From Acinetobacter sp. XS-4 (GTDB taxonomy: Bacteria > Pseudomonadota > Gammaproteobacteria > Pseudomonadales > Moraxellaceae), in contig NZ_CP094657.1 of the NCBI RefSeq assembly GCF_023920705.1, positions 4,030,001-4,094,000 on the forward strand: a stretch of DNA of 64,000 nucleotides. Reading direction: 5' to 3'. How positions within the stretch are numbered: position 1 is the first letter of the stretch; the number at the start of each line of letters is the position of its first letter. Below the pieces are notes generated by a model. The model searched no databases. It was not told where the DNA came from and was given only the letters and a program-made list of their open reading frames with translations. This document shows, in pieces, positions 873-35,054 of this stretch. The position numbers were made by a program, and so were the translations under genes.

Positions 873-1898
873 TTAGTTCAATTTTTCTAAAATTGGCTCA
901 AATTTCGAATTACGTTCTTGCCACTGTGGTTGTTTGTCTTTATCGACTATAAGGGCACGAACCCCTTCAATAAAGTCACCATGCTCAAACCAGATGTCCT
1001 GTAAATCACGCTCAAGCTGCATACATTGCGGTAAAGATAGTCCCCGCCCTAAATATTGCAGTTTTAAGCTGGTTTGTTTGGCAATAAATGAGCGCTGCTT
1101 CAAAATACTAAGCATCTTACTTGCCCAAGTTTTTAAGCCTTCATCTTGTTCATTTTCAAGACTTTGTTCGATTTCATCTAAATGCTGAAAGCCGAAGTGT
1201 TTACGGATGCCTTCGGCCAACTGTTTGAGTTCGCTTTCAGCAGGGCGAGTAATAAATCGGGTAATGATGTGTTCAATTCCCTCTTTGCGTAAACTTGGCG
1301 CTTCAACGAGAGCATCCTGCAAAGCTTGTAACTGCTCACTTGGCACATGGTAGTCAATTAAATCGAGGTAAAGCGCATCACTACTGCTAATCTGCTCACC
1401 CGTAATTGCCATATAAACGCCAATATCATCAAGGCGAGACAGGAAGTGTGTTGCGCCAACGTCTGGGAAAAAGCCAATCGCTGTTTCAGGCATAGCAAAT
1501 CTGGACTTTTCACTGCTCACAACAATGTGACAAGCCTGAGCTAAACCAAAACCGCCACCTAAAACATAGCCATCAAGCACAACAATCACTGGCTTTGCAT
1601 ATTCACGCAGTATATTTAGCATTTTATATTCGGCACTAAAGTAGCCTTTATAATCAGCCGAGCCATTTTTATAACTGTCGTAGAGATAGCGGATATCGCC
1701 ACCAGCACAGAAGGCTTTTGGACTATTTGATTTGATTAAAATTGCCTGAACAGCAGCATCATTTCGCCACAGTTCCAATTGGGCACCAATACTTTTAATC
1801 ATATCTAGCGACAATGCATTGAGATGAGTCACACGGTCTAAGGTAATCACGCCCAACTTACCTTGTTGCTCAATCATTAAGTGATTTTCTGTATTCAT
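873..1898 (-). CDS. 3-hydroxyisobutyryl-CoA hydrolase (crotonase fold)
   Basis: A 341-residue crotonase-superfamily protein. It shows the oxyanion-hole segments CAGGD (64-68) and LGGGFGL (113-119). The PE at 137-138 and PDVGAT (145-150) are typical of 3-hydroxyisobutyryl-CoA hydrolases rather than hydratases, and the length also fits that group (about 340-380 residues against about 260 for hydratases). It would hydrolyse 3-hydroxyisobutyryl-CoA to free 3-hydroxyisobutyrate, the substrate of MmsB in the same operon. It follows the enoyl-CoA hydratase gene by 12 bp, so co-translation is likely. A broader acyl-CoA hydrolase or isomerase role cannot be excluded from sequence alone. Confidence 0.85.
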   Translation of the reverse strand: MNTENHLMIEQQGKLGVITLDRVTHLNALSLDMIKSIGAQLELWRNDAAVQAILIKSNSPKAFCAGGDIRYLYDSYKNGSADYKGYFSAEYKMLNILREYAKPVIVVLDGYVLGGGFGLAQACHIVVSSEKSRFAMPETAIGFFPDVGATHFLSRLDDIGVYMAITGEQISSSDALYLDLIDYHVPSEQLQALQDALVEAPSLRKEGIEHIITRFITRPAESELKQLAEGIRKHFGFQHLDEIEQSLENEQDEGLKTWASKMLSILKQRSFIAKQTSLKLQYLGRGLSLPQCMQLERDLQDIWFEHGDFIEGVRALIVDKDKQPQWQERNSKFEPILEKLN

Positions 1899-31009: not shown

Positions 31010-31280
31010 GCCTACATTGCCAGACGGTTTTGACAGACCGCGAATAACAAAGACGATATGCAAAATTCTTATTTTGTGTGTCGGGAACTCGTTCGCCCCC
31101 TTTTTCTCTATGGTAGGGCGGAAGGGGGACACCTTTGTGTGTGCTGGTTCCTTTGTTTCCAGTCTGTCAACCCTCTTTCGTTCTACCACCATAATCAATT
31201 GACGGTGATCTGGTGGTAGGACTCCATTTTTTAAGGAGTTGACCATGATACTTTTCAAACTTATTCCCTCTCCAATTTAA
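31010..31280 (+). other. Ash-like phage-derived island in AT-rich gap
   Basis: The gap 30794-31477 is extremely AT-rich except for this block. On the plus strand a frame starting TTG at 31017 contains SFAPFFSMVGRKGDTFVCAG and ends at 31202. The same frame continues past two stops with SGGRTPFFKELTM. The order SMVGR-G, then AG, then TT, then SGG, then KEL-M resembles the Ash family of P4-like phages as I recall it. It looks like a decayed or regulatory relic rather than a normal gene. The minus-strand frame at 30986-31258 has no recognisable features. Confidence 0.4.
31245..31280 (+). CDS. Candidate 11-codon mini-ORF with strong ribosome site
   Basis: The frame MILFKLIPSPI starts 6 bp after AAGGAG (31233-31238) and ends TAA. 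In Ash-like phage genes this stretch forms the protein's C-terminus. Here, two upstream stops isolate it with its own ribosome site. Expression is unproven. Confidence 0.3.
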   Translation: MILFKLIPSPI

Positions 31281-32286: not shown

Positions 32287-32394
32287 GATCATTTTCTTCT
32301 TTAAATTTAAGTGGATATTATAAAGCTTAGTTAGAGTTCTAATACGTTAATAATGACGTAATTCTTAGAACTCCATAAAGTATTTAACATCCTT

Positions 32395-32597
32395 GTACGC
32401 TTTAACCTACAAACTTTTAGGGATTTTGCGGATTGGCGACACCCTGCTTTTCTCCTAATATCAACTCATACAGGAACAGGATGTTCCGGAACACAAAACA
32501 ACAATAATAGGTTCATACACCAGGAGCGTGAGATACGACAGGAGTCATATCTAGCAACCAAATACGAAAAAGCCCAACAGGATGTTGGGCTTTTTTT
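32395..32597 (+). ncRNA. Multicopy structured sRNA-like repeat, copy 1, with AGGA-loop hairpins
   Basis: One of three ~200-nt copies in this window. Visible structure: hairpin GGAACA-GGA-TGTTCC (32473-32487), hairpin GAC-AGGA-GTC with an outer GATA/TATC stem (32532-32551), and an intrinsic terminator AGCCCAACA-GGA-TGTTGGGCT plus T-run (32571-32597). All three present AGGA at the apex. CAGGA occurs at 32471, 32477, 32521, 32539 and 32578. It resembles, as I recall, the C4-like multicopy sRNA group of A. baumannii. It has no ORF and is convergent with the Nudix gene at 32617. Confidence 0.7.
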
Positions 32598-32616
32598 ATA
32601 TCTGAATATTGGGATT

Positions 32617-33078
32617 TTAGGGTTTAAAAATCTCTGGCAGACTATCTGCAAGAATATTAGGAATGTTGTTTGGATAAACAGTCTCGTTGGTTTGGCTTAG
32701 TTCATCAAATGTCCACCAACGACTTTTACTAATCACAAGTTTTTCATGTTCTGACCAGTTTGACGTATTCACTTCTTCTTTTTTAATAAAAACAATAAAG
32801 AGCCTTTCATTAGAAATTACAACTTCCGCACTCGGCAACATCATTTCAAAATTGCGTGTTGCAACATGCGTGTCTACATTCTGTCGTACTACGCCTAACT
32901 CTTCATAAAGCTCTCGGCAAGCTGCTTGCTCGAAGGTTTCCCCTTCCTCAAGCCCGCCACCTACGGTTGCCCAATATAATTGTCCAGCCAAAGCATCATT
33001 TGTATGGGTAAACTGAAATAACAAAATTTGATAATTTTCATTAAGAACTAATAGTCTTGAAGATTTTCTAATACGCAT
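32617..33078 (-). CDS. Nudix hydrolase
   Basis: A 153-residue Nudix protein: box GGLEEGETFEQAACREL then YEELGV. The N-terminus RIRKSSRLLVLNENYQILLFQF is typical of the ADP-ribose/NTP pyrophosphohydrolase-like group. The sequence differs from the other Nudix gene at 31867, so it is not a recent duplicate. Its module lies between two copies of the sRNA-like repeat, with the terminator of copy 1 20 bp past its stop. Confidence 0.83.
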   Translation of the reverse strand: MRIRKSSRLLVLNENYQILLFQFTHTNDALAGQLYWATVGGGLEEGETFEQAACRELYEELGVVRQNVDTHVATRNFEMMLPSAEVVISNERLFIVFIKKEEVNTSNWSEHEKLVISKSRWWTFDELSQTNETVYPNNIPNILADSLPEIFKP

Positions 33079-33150
33079 TTGATTTTTTTCTTAAAGTAAC
33101 AAGGTGGCTATTATTCATATTCATTTTGAAAAGTTAAATCATTTCTGAAT

Positions 33151-33352
33151 GTACGCTTTAACCTACAAACTTTTAGGGATTTAGCGGATTGGCGACACCC
33201 TGCTTTTTTCCTATGATGAGTTCATACAGGAACAGGATGTTCCGGAACACAAAACAACAATAATAGGTTCATGCATCAGGACGTGAGATACGACAGGAGT
33301 CATATCTAGCAACCAAATACGAAAAAGCCCAACAGGATGTTGGGCTTTTTTT
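33151..33352 (+). ncRNA. Multicopy structured sRNA-like repeat, copy 2
   Basis: Same element as copy 1, with one base deleted in the linker (CAGGACGTG instead of CAGGAGCGTG). That change turns one motif into CAGGACG, an exact CsrB-type repeat. CAGGA occurs at 33227, 33233, 33277, 33294 and 33333. The three AGGA-loop hairpins and terminator are intact. The terminator lies 32 bp past the stop of the convergent DUF4126 gene. Confidence 0.7.
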
Positions 33353-33383
33353 ATGGTCATTTAAAAATGATATTGAAGTTAAC

Positions 33384-33959
33384 CTATAGCGGACTATGCG
33401 CCTGTTCTTGCTTTTTATGGCGTATCCAACGTATTGCCAAAATAACAGCAATAACCACCACAATCGCAACAAGCGCAGGAACTAACAAAGCTGAAACCGA
33501 AAGCAAGATTGCTCCAATCCACTCCCCTGTAGCGACAACAAAATTCCCTAAGCCGCCTGTGGTTGCAGTTGAAACACCACGTGCAGCAACTGTACTCATT
33601 TGCACCACACCTGCCGTACCACCGCCCACAATAATCGCTGCCGCCCAACCTGCGAACTGTGACATTTCACCACTACTCACAGCCATGGTCGTTAACGTAC
33701 CAGCAATCATGGCCGCAGGAGTCGCGACCGTGTCTAAAGCGTTATCGACCCATGGAATATAATAAGCTGCAACTTCACATACTGTTGCCACAGCTAAAGC
33801 CAAGCAAACCGATGGCATGGCCAACCACTCAAAACCTTTTGATGGCTCAAACCATCCCATCATTGTTGCAATGCTCATCACTAACAACGGTACAAACACG
33901 CGAAAACCGCAGGCAGCGCTCAGCCCCACGCCAATACATAAACCTAATATAGTTTCCAT
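33384..33959 (-). CDS. DUF4126 small membrane protein
   Basis: A 191-residue membrane protein. The N-terminus METILGLCIGVGLSAACGFRVFVPLLVMSIATMMGW and the central EVAAYYIPWVDNALDTVATPAAMIAGTL match the DUF4126 pattern, with five or six hydrophobic helices and a basic C-terminal tail. The start at 33959 has AAGGAA 6 bp upstream; an ATG at 33983 lacks one. Function unknown. Confidence 0.78.
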   Translation of the reverse strand: METILGLCIGVGLSAACGFRVFVPLLVMSIATMMGWFEPSKGFEWLAMPSVCLALAVATVCEVAAYYIPWVDNALDTVATPAAMIAGTLTTMAVSSGEMSQFAGWAAAIIVGGGTAGVVQMSTVAARGVSTATTGGLGNFVVATGEWIGAILLSVSALLVPALVAIVVVIAVILAIRWIRHKKQEQAHSPL

Positions 33960-34020
33960 AACGGTTTCCTTTTTCATGCCCATCGCGGGTCTTGTTATGT
34001 AAGTCTTATTTTAAACTAAC

Positions 34021-34050
34021 AAAAAGCCCCATCGGGTGACAGGGCTTTTT
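34021..34050. terminator. Intrinsic terminator after the zinc-ribbon gene
   Basis: Stem AAAAAGCCC / GGGCTTTTT with a 12-nt loop, between the zinc-ribbon stop and the DUF4126 start. On the minus strand the stem ends in a T-run. Confidence 0.75.
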
Positions 34051-34081
34051 GTTAAATGCGAACGCAAATATTATTTTATTC

Positions 34082-34216
34082 TTAACGTTTAAACTCAGTG
34101 CAATAGCATTTAGTGCATGGTGGTAAACGATCTGTATTAATTTCTAAAAACACTCTCTGGCCACATTGAGCGCAGAAATAGAAGCCTGTTCCGGGTTTTT
34201 CGCCAGCTGTTACCAT
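34082..34216 (-). CDS. 44-residue zinc-ribbon protein
   Basis: A short gene encoding 44 residues, starting MVTAGEKPGTGFYFCAQCGQ and ending CTKCYCTEFKR. Two CxxC knuckles (CAQC and CTKC) spaced about 17 residues apart form a classic zinc ribbon. An AGGAA ribosome site lies 8 bp before the ATG. A terminator follows. Such mini zinc ribbons often bind RNA, DNA or a protein partner; none is identifiable here. Confidence 0.75.
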   Translation of the reverse strand: MVTAGEKPGTGFYFCAQCGQRVFLEINTDRLPPCTKCYCTEFKR

Positions 34217-34329
34217 GATTGCATTCCTGTAATCGTATAGATATTAAACAGGAATATAACCCAGTTAGAGTGATTGTCAATTGTCCATTTCGCCCGATGA
34301 TGATGGCATAAATGCAAAAAATGTTATTT

Positions 34330-34532
34330 GTACGATTTATCTTACAAACTTTTAGGGATTTAGCGGATTGGCGACTTACCACTTTTTTCCTATCATGAGT
34401 TCATACAGGAACAGGATGTTCCGGAACATAAAACAACAATAATAGGTTCATGCACTAGGAGCGTGAGATACGACAGGAGTCATATCTAGCAACCAAATAC
34501 GAAAAAGCCCGACAGGATGTCGGGCTTTTTTT
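34330..34532 (+). ncRNA. Multicopy structured sRNA-like repeat, copy 3
   Basis: The third copy. The terminator stem reads AGCCCGAC/GTCGGGCT instead of AGCCCAAC/GTTGGGCT, a compensatory change (A-T to G-C) that keeps pairing and the AGGAT loop. CAGGA occurs at 34406, 34412, 34474 and 34513; the fifth motif is TAGGA at 34456. The 5' part is more diverged (CTTACCACTTTTTT instead of CACCCTGCTTTTTT). The terminator ends 7 bp before the stop of the convergent lipoprotein gene. Confidence 0.7.
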
Positions 34533-34538
34533 ATATTC

Positions 34539-35054
34539 TTATTTTTCTGCTAAATAGCTTCTTACACGTGCATCATTGAGTAAAGTCATTACCCCTTCTG
34601 CAATACATCCATTTAAATCTTGTACTAACACACCACTCGTATGAGGAACGGTAAATGGAATAGTTTGTCCATTTCCTAAAGTCGCTTCGAATTTAATTTT
34701 ACTGCGCCAGAAAAGCAGATTGGTGTAGGTACTACGTAATGAATTTACTTTAATCGCAATCGATTTCGATCCATTACCATCAACAGGTTGACCATTTTTC
34801 AATAGTTCTTTTTGAGTCTGTTGTACCATCGTTTCTGTAATAGACTTAATGCTAGAGTCCAGTTTTGTGCCCATATAAGAATATACAATCACTCGTTCAT
34901 CTGAAGTTTGAGCATTGGTTACATCTGCCTTACCAATAACCTTCACAGGTTGAATTAAACCTGCACGTAAAGGGTACTCTGTACTTACATAAGGCATCGT
35001 CCCACAAGCAGTTAATATAAGAGAGCAAATTGAAATAATGAATAAGTTACGCAT
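34539..35054 (-). CDS. Lipoprotein of unknown function
   Basis: A 171-residue protein with a signal peptide and lipobox LTACG (Cys 17). The mature part resembles outer-membrane-type YajG/DUF-like lipoproteins: a repeated beta pattern, VIVYSYMG, and KSITETMVQQTQKELLKNGQPV. No catalytic motif is visible. It is separated from acnD by a terminator. Function unknown. Confidence 0.65.
   Translation of the reverse strand: MRNLFIISICSLILTACGTMPYVSTEYPLRAGLIQPVKVIGKADVTNAQTSDERVIVYSYMGTKLDSSIKSITETMVQQTQKELLKNGQPVDGNGSKSIAIKVNSLRSTYTNLLFWRSKIKFEATLGNGQTIPFTVPHTSGVLVQDLNGCIAEGVMTLLNDARVRSYLAEK

What the first reader, a model, noticed from the sequence alone, without database searches (positions are those of the whole stretch)
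32395..34532. Three-copy sRNA-like repeat that looks like a CsrA/RsmA decoy
Each copy carries four or five (C/U)AGGA motifs within about 120 nt, including CAGGATG and, in copy 2, CAGGACG, which match the CsrB repeat CAGGA(U/C/A)G. Three of them sit at the apex of hairpins: AC-AGGAT-GT in the first hairpin and the terminator, and GAC-AGGA-GTC in the second. This is close to the in-vitro CsrA consensus RUACARGGAUGU. CsrA-type proteins are titrated by exactly such loops. I know of no CsrB/RsmZ-type RNA assigned in Acinetobacter, so a multicopy C4-like sRNA family acting as a distributed CsrA sponge would be new.
Basis: partly seen in the sequence, partly recalled or inferred. Interest (0 to 1): 0.88.

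Follow-up and report, generated by a model that had tools for sequence, protein, structure and literature searches.

The report
GacA-driven CsrA-trapping small RNA family
Three near-identical genes in this Acinetobacter stretch very probably make small RNAs that soak up the global regulator protein CsrA when the GacS/GacA sensor system switches them on; relatives occur across the genus and on hundreds of plasmid records.

Summary
The repeat is real. Each copy has a GacA-type box, a promoter-like sequence, a predicted ~130-nt transcript with five AGGA motifs, and a terminator hairpin. The evidence fits a GacA-activated sRNA that titrates CsrA (CsrB/RsmY kind). It is not C4-like.

A covariance model finds the family in 146 of 149 sampled Acinetobacter genomes: five members here, 10-14 in six genomes picked for high counts. 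In 88 members three AGGA hairpins are kept on changing stems. A box with at most 2 mismatches to the recalled Pseudomonas GacA consensus precedes 80 of 89 members, against 31 of 4450 shuffles. Similarity to Rfam RsmY is weak: 15 of 20 other members hit below its gathering score, but the window copies do not hit it even at E 10.

Partly in print: such RNAs were predicted in A. baylyi ADP1, and positions suggest these are AB5075 'Group 3' sRNAs, function unassigned. Apparently new: the multicopy GacA-box family, a second GGA-rich RNA with the box, and plasmid carriage (222 plasmid records match over 80% of a plasmid copy). CsrA binding and GacA dependence are inferred.

The parts
32394..32411 (+). 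copy 1: GacA-type box TGTACGCTTTAACCTACA (2 mismatches to the recalled consensus TGTAAG-N6-CTTACA)
32433..32461 (+). copy 1: promoter-like -35 TTGGCG, 17-nt spacer, -10 TAATAT
   Evidence: read by eye, not among the hits of the pattern scan
32468..32597 (+). copy 1: predicted sRNA, ~130 nt (start inferred from the promoter, end from the T-run)
   Evidence: ends not mapped in this strain
32473..32487 (+). copy 1 hairpin 1, AGGA in the apical loop
32522..32525 (+). copy 1 middle AGGA (structure uncertain)
32531..32552 (+). copy 1 hairpin 2, GAC-AGGA-GTC apex
32567..32597 (+). copy 1 terminator hairpin with AGGA in its loop, then T-run
   Evidence: the pattern scan lists it on the minus strand only
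33150..33167 (+). copy 2: GacA-type box TGTACGCTTTAACCTACA
33189..33217 (+). copy 2: promoter-like TTGGCG-17-TATGAT
33223..33352 (+). copy 2: predicted sRNA with hairpin 1 (33229-33243), hairpin 2 (33286-33307) and terminator hairpin (33322-33350)
34329..34346 (+). copy 3: GacA-type box TGTACGATTTATCTTACA (1 mismatch)
34368..34396 (+). copy 3: promoter-like TTGGCG-17-TATCAT
34403..34532 (+). copy 3: predicted sRNA with hairpin 1 (34408-34422), hairpin 2 (34466-34487) and terminator (34502-34530)

Best explanation
Each copy is an independent gene for a ~130-nt untranslated sRNA of the CsrB/RsmY functional kind. GacA binds the 18-bp box about 71 bp upstream of the RNA and activates the promoter. 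The RNA presents AGGA in the loops of hairpin 1, hairpin 2 and the terminator, plus two further AGGA. CsrA dimers bind these loops, which takes CsrA away from its target mRNAs. Several similar copies give a larger or graded titration capacity. Shown here by computation: anatomy, conservation, covariation, the positioned box, presence of csrA, gacA and gacS. Reported by others: transcripts of this size at fitting positions in A. baumannii AB5075. Inferred: GacA dependence, CsrA binding, titration.
For: Family in 146 of 149 sampled Acinetobacter genomes at E<=0.1. In 88 distinct members AGGA is kept in the hairpin-1 loop in 88, middle motif 87, hairpin-2 loop 86, terminator loop 80. Stems: 98.5% of cells paired, 15 of 25 pairs with two-sided changes, 0 of 500 shuffles as high on any measure, slid controls 31-54% paired (MAFFT alignment not fitted to the structure); most of the covariation is in hairpin 2 and the terminator. 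Mean P(unpaired) of the GGA 0.94, 0.98 and 1.00 in the three loops against 0.46 overall. Best box within 160 nt upstream starts at -71 in 81 of 89; <=2 mismatches in 80 of 89 against 31 of 4450 shuffles. CsrA 84 aa, NCBIfam equivalog; GacA orthologue 267 bits against 80 for the next, a match in 148 of 149 genomes; GacS/BarA-like match in a 946-aa open frame. RsmY (RF00195) hits 15 of 20 other members full length, best E 1.8e-4, gathering score not reached. In A. baylyi a growth phenotype from gacA/gacS loss appears to require csrA (PMC12455638, passages).
Against: No binding or expression data for this strain. The three window copies give no RsmY hit up to E 10, nor does L006; L004 does, at E 0.1; so common descent with RsmY is weakly supported. 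Hairpin 1 shows little covariation (three two-sided cells; its outer pair is open in 9 of 88). The middle AGGA is often not in a loop (P unpaired 0.55; hairpin loop in 22 of 88 MFE folds). GGA counts do not clearly exceed shuffles, and L006's five AGGA are reached by 50 of 2000. Genome-wide, matches to the box pattern with <=1 mismatch are no commoner than those of the reversed pattern (103 against 135 rows), so it is the position that counts. G032, G050, G077, G026 and G148 have a GacA match but no family match at E<=0.001; G116 has the RNA but no GacA match. The 88 members are mainly best-scoring matches and lean towards conservation.
Confidence: 0.86

Rival explanations
1. A base-pairing, Hfq-dependent sRNA family in which the conserved AGGA loops and the A-rich linker act as seed and Hfq site; CsrA binding is absent or secondary.
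For: An A-rich linker is nearly as conserved as the loops. Another GacA-box sRNA of this genome corresponds to ABUWs076/sRNA99, the most prevalent sRNA in Hfq RIL-seq chimeras in A. baumannii (PMC12802169, passages; probe match with 3 mismatches).
Against: AGGA recurs in 3-5 separate places of one molecule while the stems around it change, as a repeated protein site predicts. The motif resembles a Shine-Dalgarno sequence, not its complement. None of the four Group 3 names turned up in the main texts of the interactome papers; supplements could not be read. Pseudomonas RsmY is recalled to bind Hfq as well, so both roles are compatible.
Confidence: 0.09
2. C4-type antisense RNAs of phage origin.
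For: A C4 RNA is near (31106-31193), and A. baumannii has many C4-type sRNAs (PMC5320573 Group 1).
Against: No C4 hit on the three copies up to E 10 or on L004 and L006. Weiss et al. keep Group 1 and Group 3 apart.
Confidence: 0.01
3. A dispersed mobile or REP-like repeat without RNA function, spread by plasmids.
For: Multiple copies per genome, tandem clusters, and many plasmid copies.
Against: Box, stems and loops are conserved together with compensatory changes, and fitting transcripts are reported in AB5075.
Confidence: 0.02

Closest known systems
RsmY (Rfam RF00195) of Pseudomonas, with RsmZ/RsmX
   Same: Length ~120-130 nt, 5' hairpin with AGGA loop, A-rich linker, later AGGA motifs, terminator (alignment); GacA-type box upstream; full-length sub-threshold similarity in 15 of 20 members tested.
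   Different: Gathering score not reached; no hit for the window copies or L006 up to E 10. Here the terminator loop carries AGGA, there are usually several copies per genome (1-14 matches), and plasmid copies exist.
CsrB/CsrC of Enterobacteriaceae and Vibrio
   Same: Repeated GGA in loops, CsrA titration (proposed here), response-regulator control.
   Different: Much shorter, far fewer motifs (E. coli CsrB and CsrC have 22 and 14 GGA according to PMC11882849, passages); no Rfam match to them.
A. baumannii AB5075 Group 3 sRNAs ABUWs005/061/081/083 (PMC5320573)
   Same: Four members of 130/128/137/147 nt; map position and strand of ABUWs005, 081 and 083 fit L004, L006 and the window cluster, and the size class is the same.
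   Different: That paper assigns them no function. The match is by position and size class, not sequence; no counterpart of ABUWs061 was found in this genome.
Predicted RsmA-regulating sRNAs of A. baylyi ADP1 (PMC5568370 Table 2)
   Same: Same genus, coordinates giving 119 and 139 nt, same proposed function.
   Different: Whether those loci belong to this family was not tested; the parts read mention no multicopy Acinetobacter family and no plasmids.

Membership tests
CsrA/RsmA-titrating sRNAs (CsrB/RsmY kind) | Several (A)GGA motifs in accessible hairpin loops, conserved in relatives | tested here: met
   (88 members); the middle motif is not reliably in a loop
CsrA/RsmA-titrating sRNAs (CsrB/RsmY kind) | Own promoter and intrinsic terminator | tested here: met
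   as sequence patterns only; the promoter scan's total is at chance (7 against 5.9)
CsrA/RsmA-titrating sRNAs (CsrB/RsmY kind) | Non-coding | tested here: inconclusive
   ORFs of 60 aa or more over the copies are on the opposite strand, except one starting in the copy-2 terminator at 33337; ORF conservation not tested
CsrA/RsmA-titrating sRNAs (CsrB/RsmY kind) | GacA/UvrY-type control site upstream | tested here: met
   starts at -71 in 81 of 89; <=2 mismatches in 80 of 89 against 31 of 4450 shuffles; consensus recalled
CsrA/RsmA-titrating sRNAs (CsrB/RsmY kind) | csrA and gacA/gacS in the genome | tested here: met
   GacA and GacS matches are below NCBIfam's curated cut-offs for UvrY and BarA
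CsrA/RsmA-titrating sRNAs (CsrB/RsmY kind) | Binds CsrA with high affinity and relieves its action | not testable with these tools
   needs gel shift, CLIP and deletion strains
Rfam RF00195 RsmY | Score at or above the gathering threshold (57 bits) | tested here: not met
   best 30.9 bits among 20 other members; no hit for the window copies up to E 10
Rfam RF01695 C4 antisense RNA | C4 covariance-model match | tested here: not met
   only hit is 31106-31193; none in 32300-34600 up to E 10
AB5075 Group 3 sRNAs | Sequence identity to ABUWs005/061/081/083 | tested here: inconclusive
   positions and strands fit for three of the four; AB5075 sequence not available here

The most novel reading that the evidence does not exclude
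Acinetobacter plasmids, including small resistance plasmids, carry their own GacA-responsive CsrA-trapping RNAs: a mobile regulatory module by which a plasmid adds CsrA-binding sites in step with the host's own GacS/GacA signal and so shifts the host's CsrA regulon. With a second chromosomal GGA-rich RNA and two further GacA-box sRNAs, the genus would have an unusually large set of such RNAs.
Probability: 0.45. Interest if true: 0.82.

Novelty: new member of a known kind. Interest (0 to 1): 0.63.

Why it matters
GacS/GacA and CsrA control important traits in Acinetobacter, but in the papers seen the RNAs that should link them were only postulated or predicted: a 2025 A. [quoted passage not shown] This gives loci, boundaries, a control site and a covariance model, so the link becomes directly testable. 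If the plasmid copies work, plasmid carriage changes a global regulator of the host.

Tried and rejected
Rejected: C4 membership; plain RsmY membership; GGA counts as evidence; near matches to the box as genome-wide evidence (not above the reversed control). The search in the family found matches in 63 of 199 genomes, all in 1 of 16 genera. The six phage-collection hits are not taken as phage: the one fetched carries chromosomal genes such as aconitate hydratase. Three chromosome-size records among the plasmid hits (H1-H3) are not counted as plasmids. One row is mislabelled by my script: 'H1 loop' there is the 5' AGGA (72 of 88); the hairpin-1 figure is. The ADP1 predictions could not be tied to this family. 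G230 was guessed from its size to be A. baylyi; a named A. baylyi record came (L238, L259). Dropped rows: of 97 matches, 8 duplicates, then one weak outlier (L039:414-532) before the 88-sequence counts.

Full report
What is there. The window is G000:C1:4030001-4094000 of a 4.17-Mb Acinetobacter chromosome. Three copies of a ~209-bp unit lie in the gaps between four minus-strand genes: two NUDIX-type genes, a DUF4126 gene and an unassigned gene. Each unit reads: 18-bp box, promoter-like TTGGCG-17-(TAATAT, TATGAT or TATCAT), about 130 nt of predicted RNA, terminator hairpin and T-run. The pattern scan lists the promoters of copies 2 and 3 and the plus-strand terminator of copy 3 only, and its promoter total is at chance (7 against 5.9); copy 1's promoter was read by eye.

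Is it more than chance. Each copy has 5 AGGA; shuffles reach that in 0, 3 and 14 of 2000. All three fold much better than shuffles (z -5.2, -6.3, -6.3, none of 200 as good). GGA as such is not clearly enriched.

Relatives in this genome. Blastn found a fourth copy (80% identical, L004) and a 40-nt match that proved to be part of a divergent fifth member (L006), in which hairpin 1 reads GAGACAGGATGTCTC and the terminator stem differs, with AGGA kept in both loops. A covariance model from these five finds five clear members in the genome (E<=1.3e-17); the next match, E 0.0049, is on the reverse strand of L004's terminator region.

Across the genus. 146 of 149 sampled Acinetobacter genomes match at E<=0.1, with 1 to 14 matches each (some weak matches will be reverse-strand echoes of terminators). 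Six genomes chosen for high counts keep 10-14 matches at E<=0.001. In the 30 loci fetched by that call, the best box near the match has <=2 mismatches in 23. Outside Acinetobacter none of the other 15 genera sampled in the family matched. From 74 loci, 97 matches gave 89 distinct members. These are mainly best-scoring matches, so conservation figures are upper estimates.

Structure. On a MAFFT alignment of 88 members (one outlier dropped) AGGA is invariant in hairpin 1, 87 of 88 in the middle motif, 86 in hairpin 2 and 80 in the terminator loop. The stems carry two-sided changes in 15 of 25 pairs, above all 500 shuffles and all slid controls. Hairpin 2 and the terminator give nearly all of that; hairpin 1 varies too little to say much. 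The three loops are predicted open in nearly all members; the middle motif is not reliably so.

Control site. For all 89 members at least 140 nt upstream was available. The best match to the Pseudomonas GacA consensus TGTAAG-N6-CTTACA (recalled, not from a call) starts at -71 in 81, and has <=2 mismatches in 80; shuffles of the same upstreams give 31 of 4450. In the whole genome 9 places match TGTAMG-N6-CNTACA exactly (the pattern was widened using members, so this is not an independent test). Four are boxes of family members; the fifth member's box has one mismatch to the pattern. Three others stand before further putative sRNAs that correspond to AB5075 sRNAs. The published Northern probes match as follows: ABUWs077 with 1 mismatch and ABUWs076 with 3 in this genome; ABUWs074 with 0 in three relatives and 5 of 25 in this genome's own copy. 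The remaining two places (433910, 1304277) were not explained.

A second RNA. The ABUWs074-like RNA (L078, minus strand) is ~170 nt with AGGA in the terminator loop. A 266-bp query including its box matches 121 of 149 genomes at E<=0.001, some only over the 3' part. The 30 best matches (this genome's own included), all examined, have 7-10 GGA and a box with <=2 mismatches. Its fold is less marked (z -2.6). It may be a partner of the first family, as RsmZ is of RsmY; this is inference.

System. CsrA is present once, as are a GacA orthologue (267 bits, next 80; NCBI's cut-off for UvrY is 280) and a GacS/BarA-like kinase (563 bits, next 187, cut-off 890). 148 of 149 genomes have a GacA match at E<=1e-40; G116 does not but has the RNA. 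G032, G050, G077, G026 and G148 have GacA but no family match at E<=0.001: unexplained; divergent members are possible.

Relation to RsmY. Of 20 other members scanned against all Rfam families, 15 hit RsmY over its full length at E<=1, the best at 1.8e-4; other families, such as Thr_leader, hit fewer members. But L004 reaches only E 0.1, and L006 and the three window copies have no RsmY hit up to E 10. So 'works like RsmY' is the claim, not 'is RsmY'. The result led me to lower the main confidence from 0.88 to 0.86.

Plasmids. Blastn with copy 3 matches 444 of 72,556 PLSDB records, 423 of them Acinetobacter, 88 over at least 80% of the query; at least three are chromosome-size. A plasmid copy as query matches 270 records, 222 over at least 80% (of 40 rows listed none is chromosome-size). 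Records are not distinct plasmid types. I fetched 15 plasmid loci from these lists and had one; all 16 match the model at E<=1.4e-6. They hold 18 copies (15 distinct transcripts). The box starts at -69 to -71 in all 18, with <=2 mismatches in 13 and <=3 in 17. AGGA is kept in hairpin 1 in 16 of 18 and the terminator loop in 15 of 18, but in hairpin 2 in only 7 of 18, so plasmid copies offer fewer sites (2-5 AGGA); for this I lowered the novel case from 0.5 to 0.45. Of the 15 annotated regions 9 hold toxin-antitoxin genes and 3 a resistance gene, OXA-58-like or tet(39). No RNA gene is listed, but the PLSDB table carries none by design; in 3 of the 40 rows a protein is annotated under the match. 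One of 5,426 E. coli genomes has a copy, on a plasmid.

Mechanism. Best reading: GacA-activated RNAs that trap CsrA. Shown: anatomy, conservation, covariation, positioned box, presence of the protein partners. Inferred: activation by GacA, binding by CsrA, relief of CsrA targets. Indirect support: in A. baylyi, a phenotype of gacA/gacS loss appears to require csrA (PMC12455638, passages).

What is known. Weiss et al. 2016 (PMC5320573; passages and section 18) describe four Group 3 sRNAs without function. Map positions and strands of three fit this family and the size class is the same, but sequences could not be compared, and I used the published 130 nt of ABUWs005 when setting the ends of L004, so that agreement is not independent. 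PMC5568370 (passages and section 16) reports predicted RsmA-regulating sRNAs in A. baylyi ADP1. PMC12442408 (passages) draws a CsrB-like RNA in A. baylyi citing Kulkarni 2006. Singh et al. 2025 and Kulkarni et al. 2006 are not held and unread. In the listings of my paper searches (most show only the top 20) and the passages read, I saw no work that names this family as CsrA-binding or reports such RNAs on Acinetobacter plasmids. Given the unread papers, novelty is set at 'new member of a known kind', with the plasmid reading kept as the novel case.

Noticed in passing
window 31106-31193: A C4 antisense RNA (Rfam RF01695, 72.3 bits), separate from the repeat.
   Followed up: partly
L078 about 1280-1447, minus strand (G000:C1:3701238-3701503 with its box): Second GacA-box RNA, GGA-rich, corresponding to AB5075 ABUWs074; matches in 121 of 149 genomes.
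   Followed up: partly
L079/L080 minus strand (boxes at G000:C1:3776741 and 3777189): Two tandem GacA-box sRNAs with boxes 448 bp apart, corresponding to ABUWs076 (sRNA99, prominent in Hfq chimeras) and ABUWs077; few AGGA.
   Followed up: partly
L077 (G000:C1:1304277, minus) and L076 (433910, minus): Two more exact box-pattern places with no recognised sRNA behind them.
   Followed up: no
L316 and L319: Plasmid loci with two family copies each; in one copy the terminator loop reads CATCCTG, i.e. AGGA lost.
   Followed up: partly
NZ_CP171639.1:42778-42909: A match at 78.5% identity on a plasmid of an E. coli strain from cattle, the only one of 5,426 E. coli genomes.
   Followed up: no
plasmid search: 17 Klebsiella, 3 Raoultella and 1 Enterobacter plasmid records also match; which part matches was not looked at.
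   Followed up: no
CAKLQF020000013.1 (L331): A record filed as Acinetobacter phage MD-2021a carries bacterial chromosomal genes (aconitate hydratase, 3-oxoacyl-ACP synthase), so it looks like host DNA.
   Followed up: partly
genomes G032, G050, G077, G026, G148: Acinetobacter genomes of 1.9-2.8 Mb with a GacA match but no detectable member of the family at E<=0.001.
   Followed up: partly
L320 1134-1184: An nhaA-I-type RNA (RF03057) near a SulP transporter gene on an A. baumannii plasmid.
   Followed up: no
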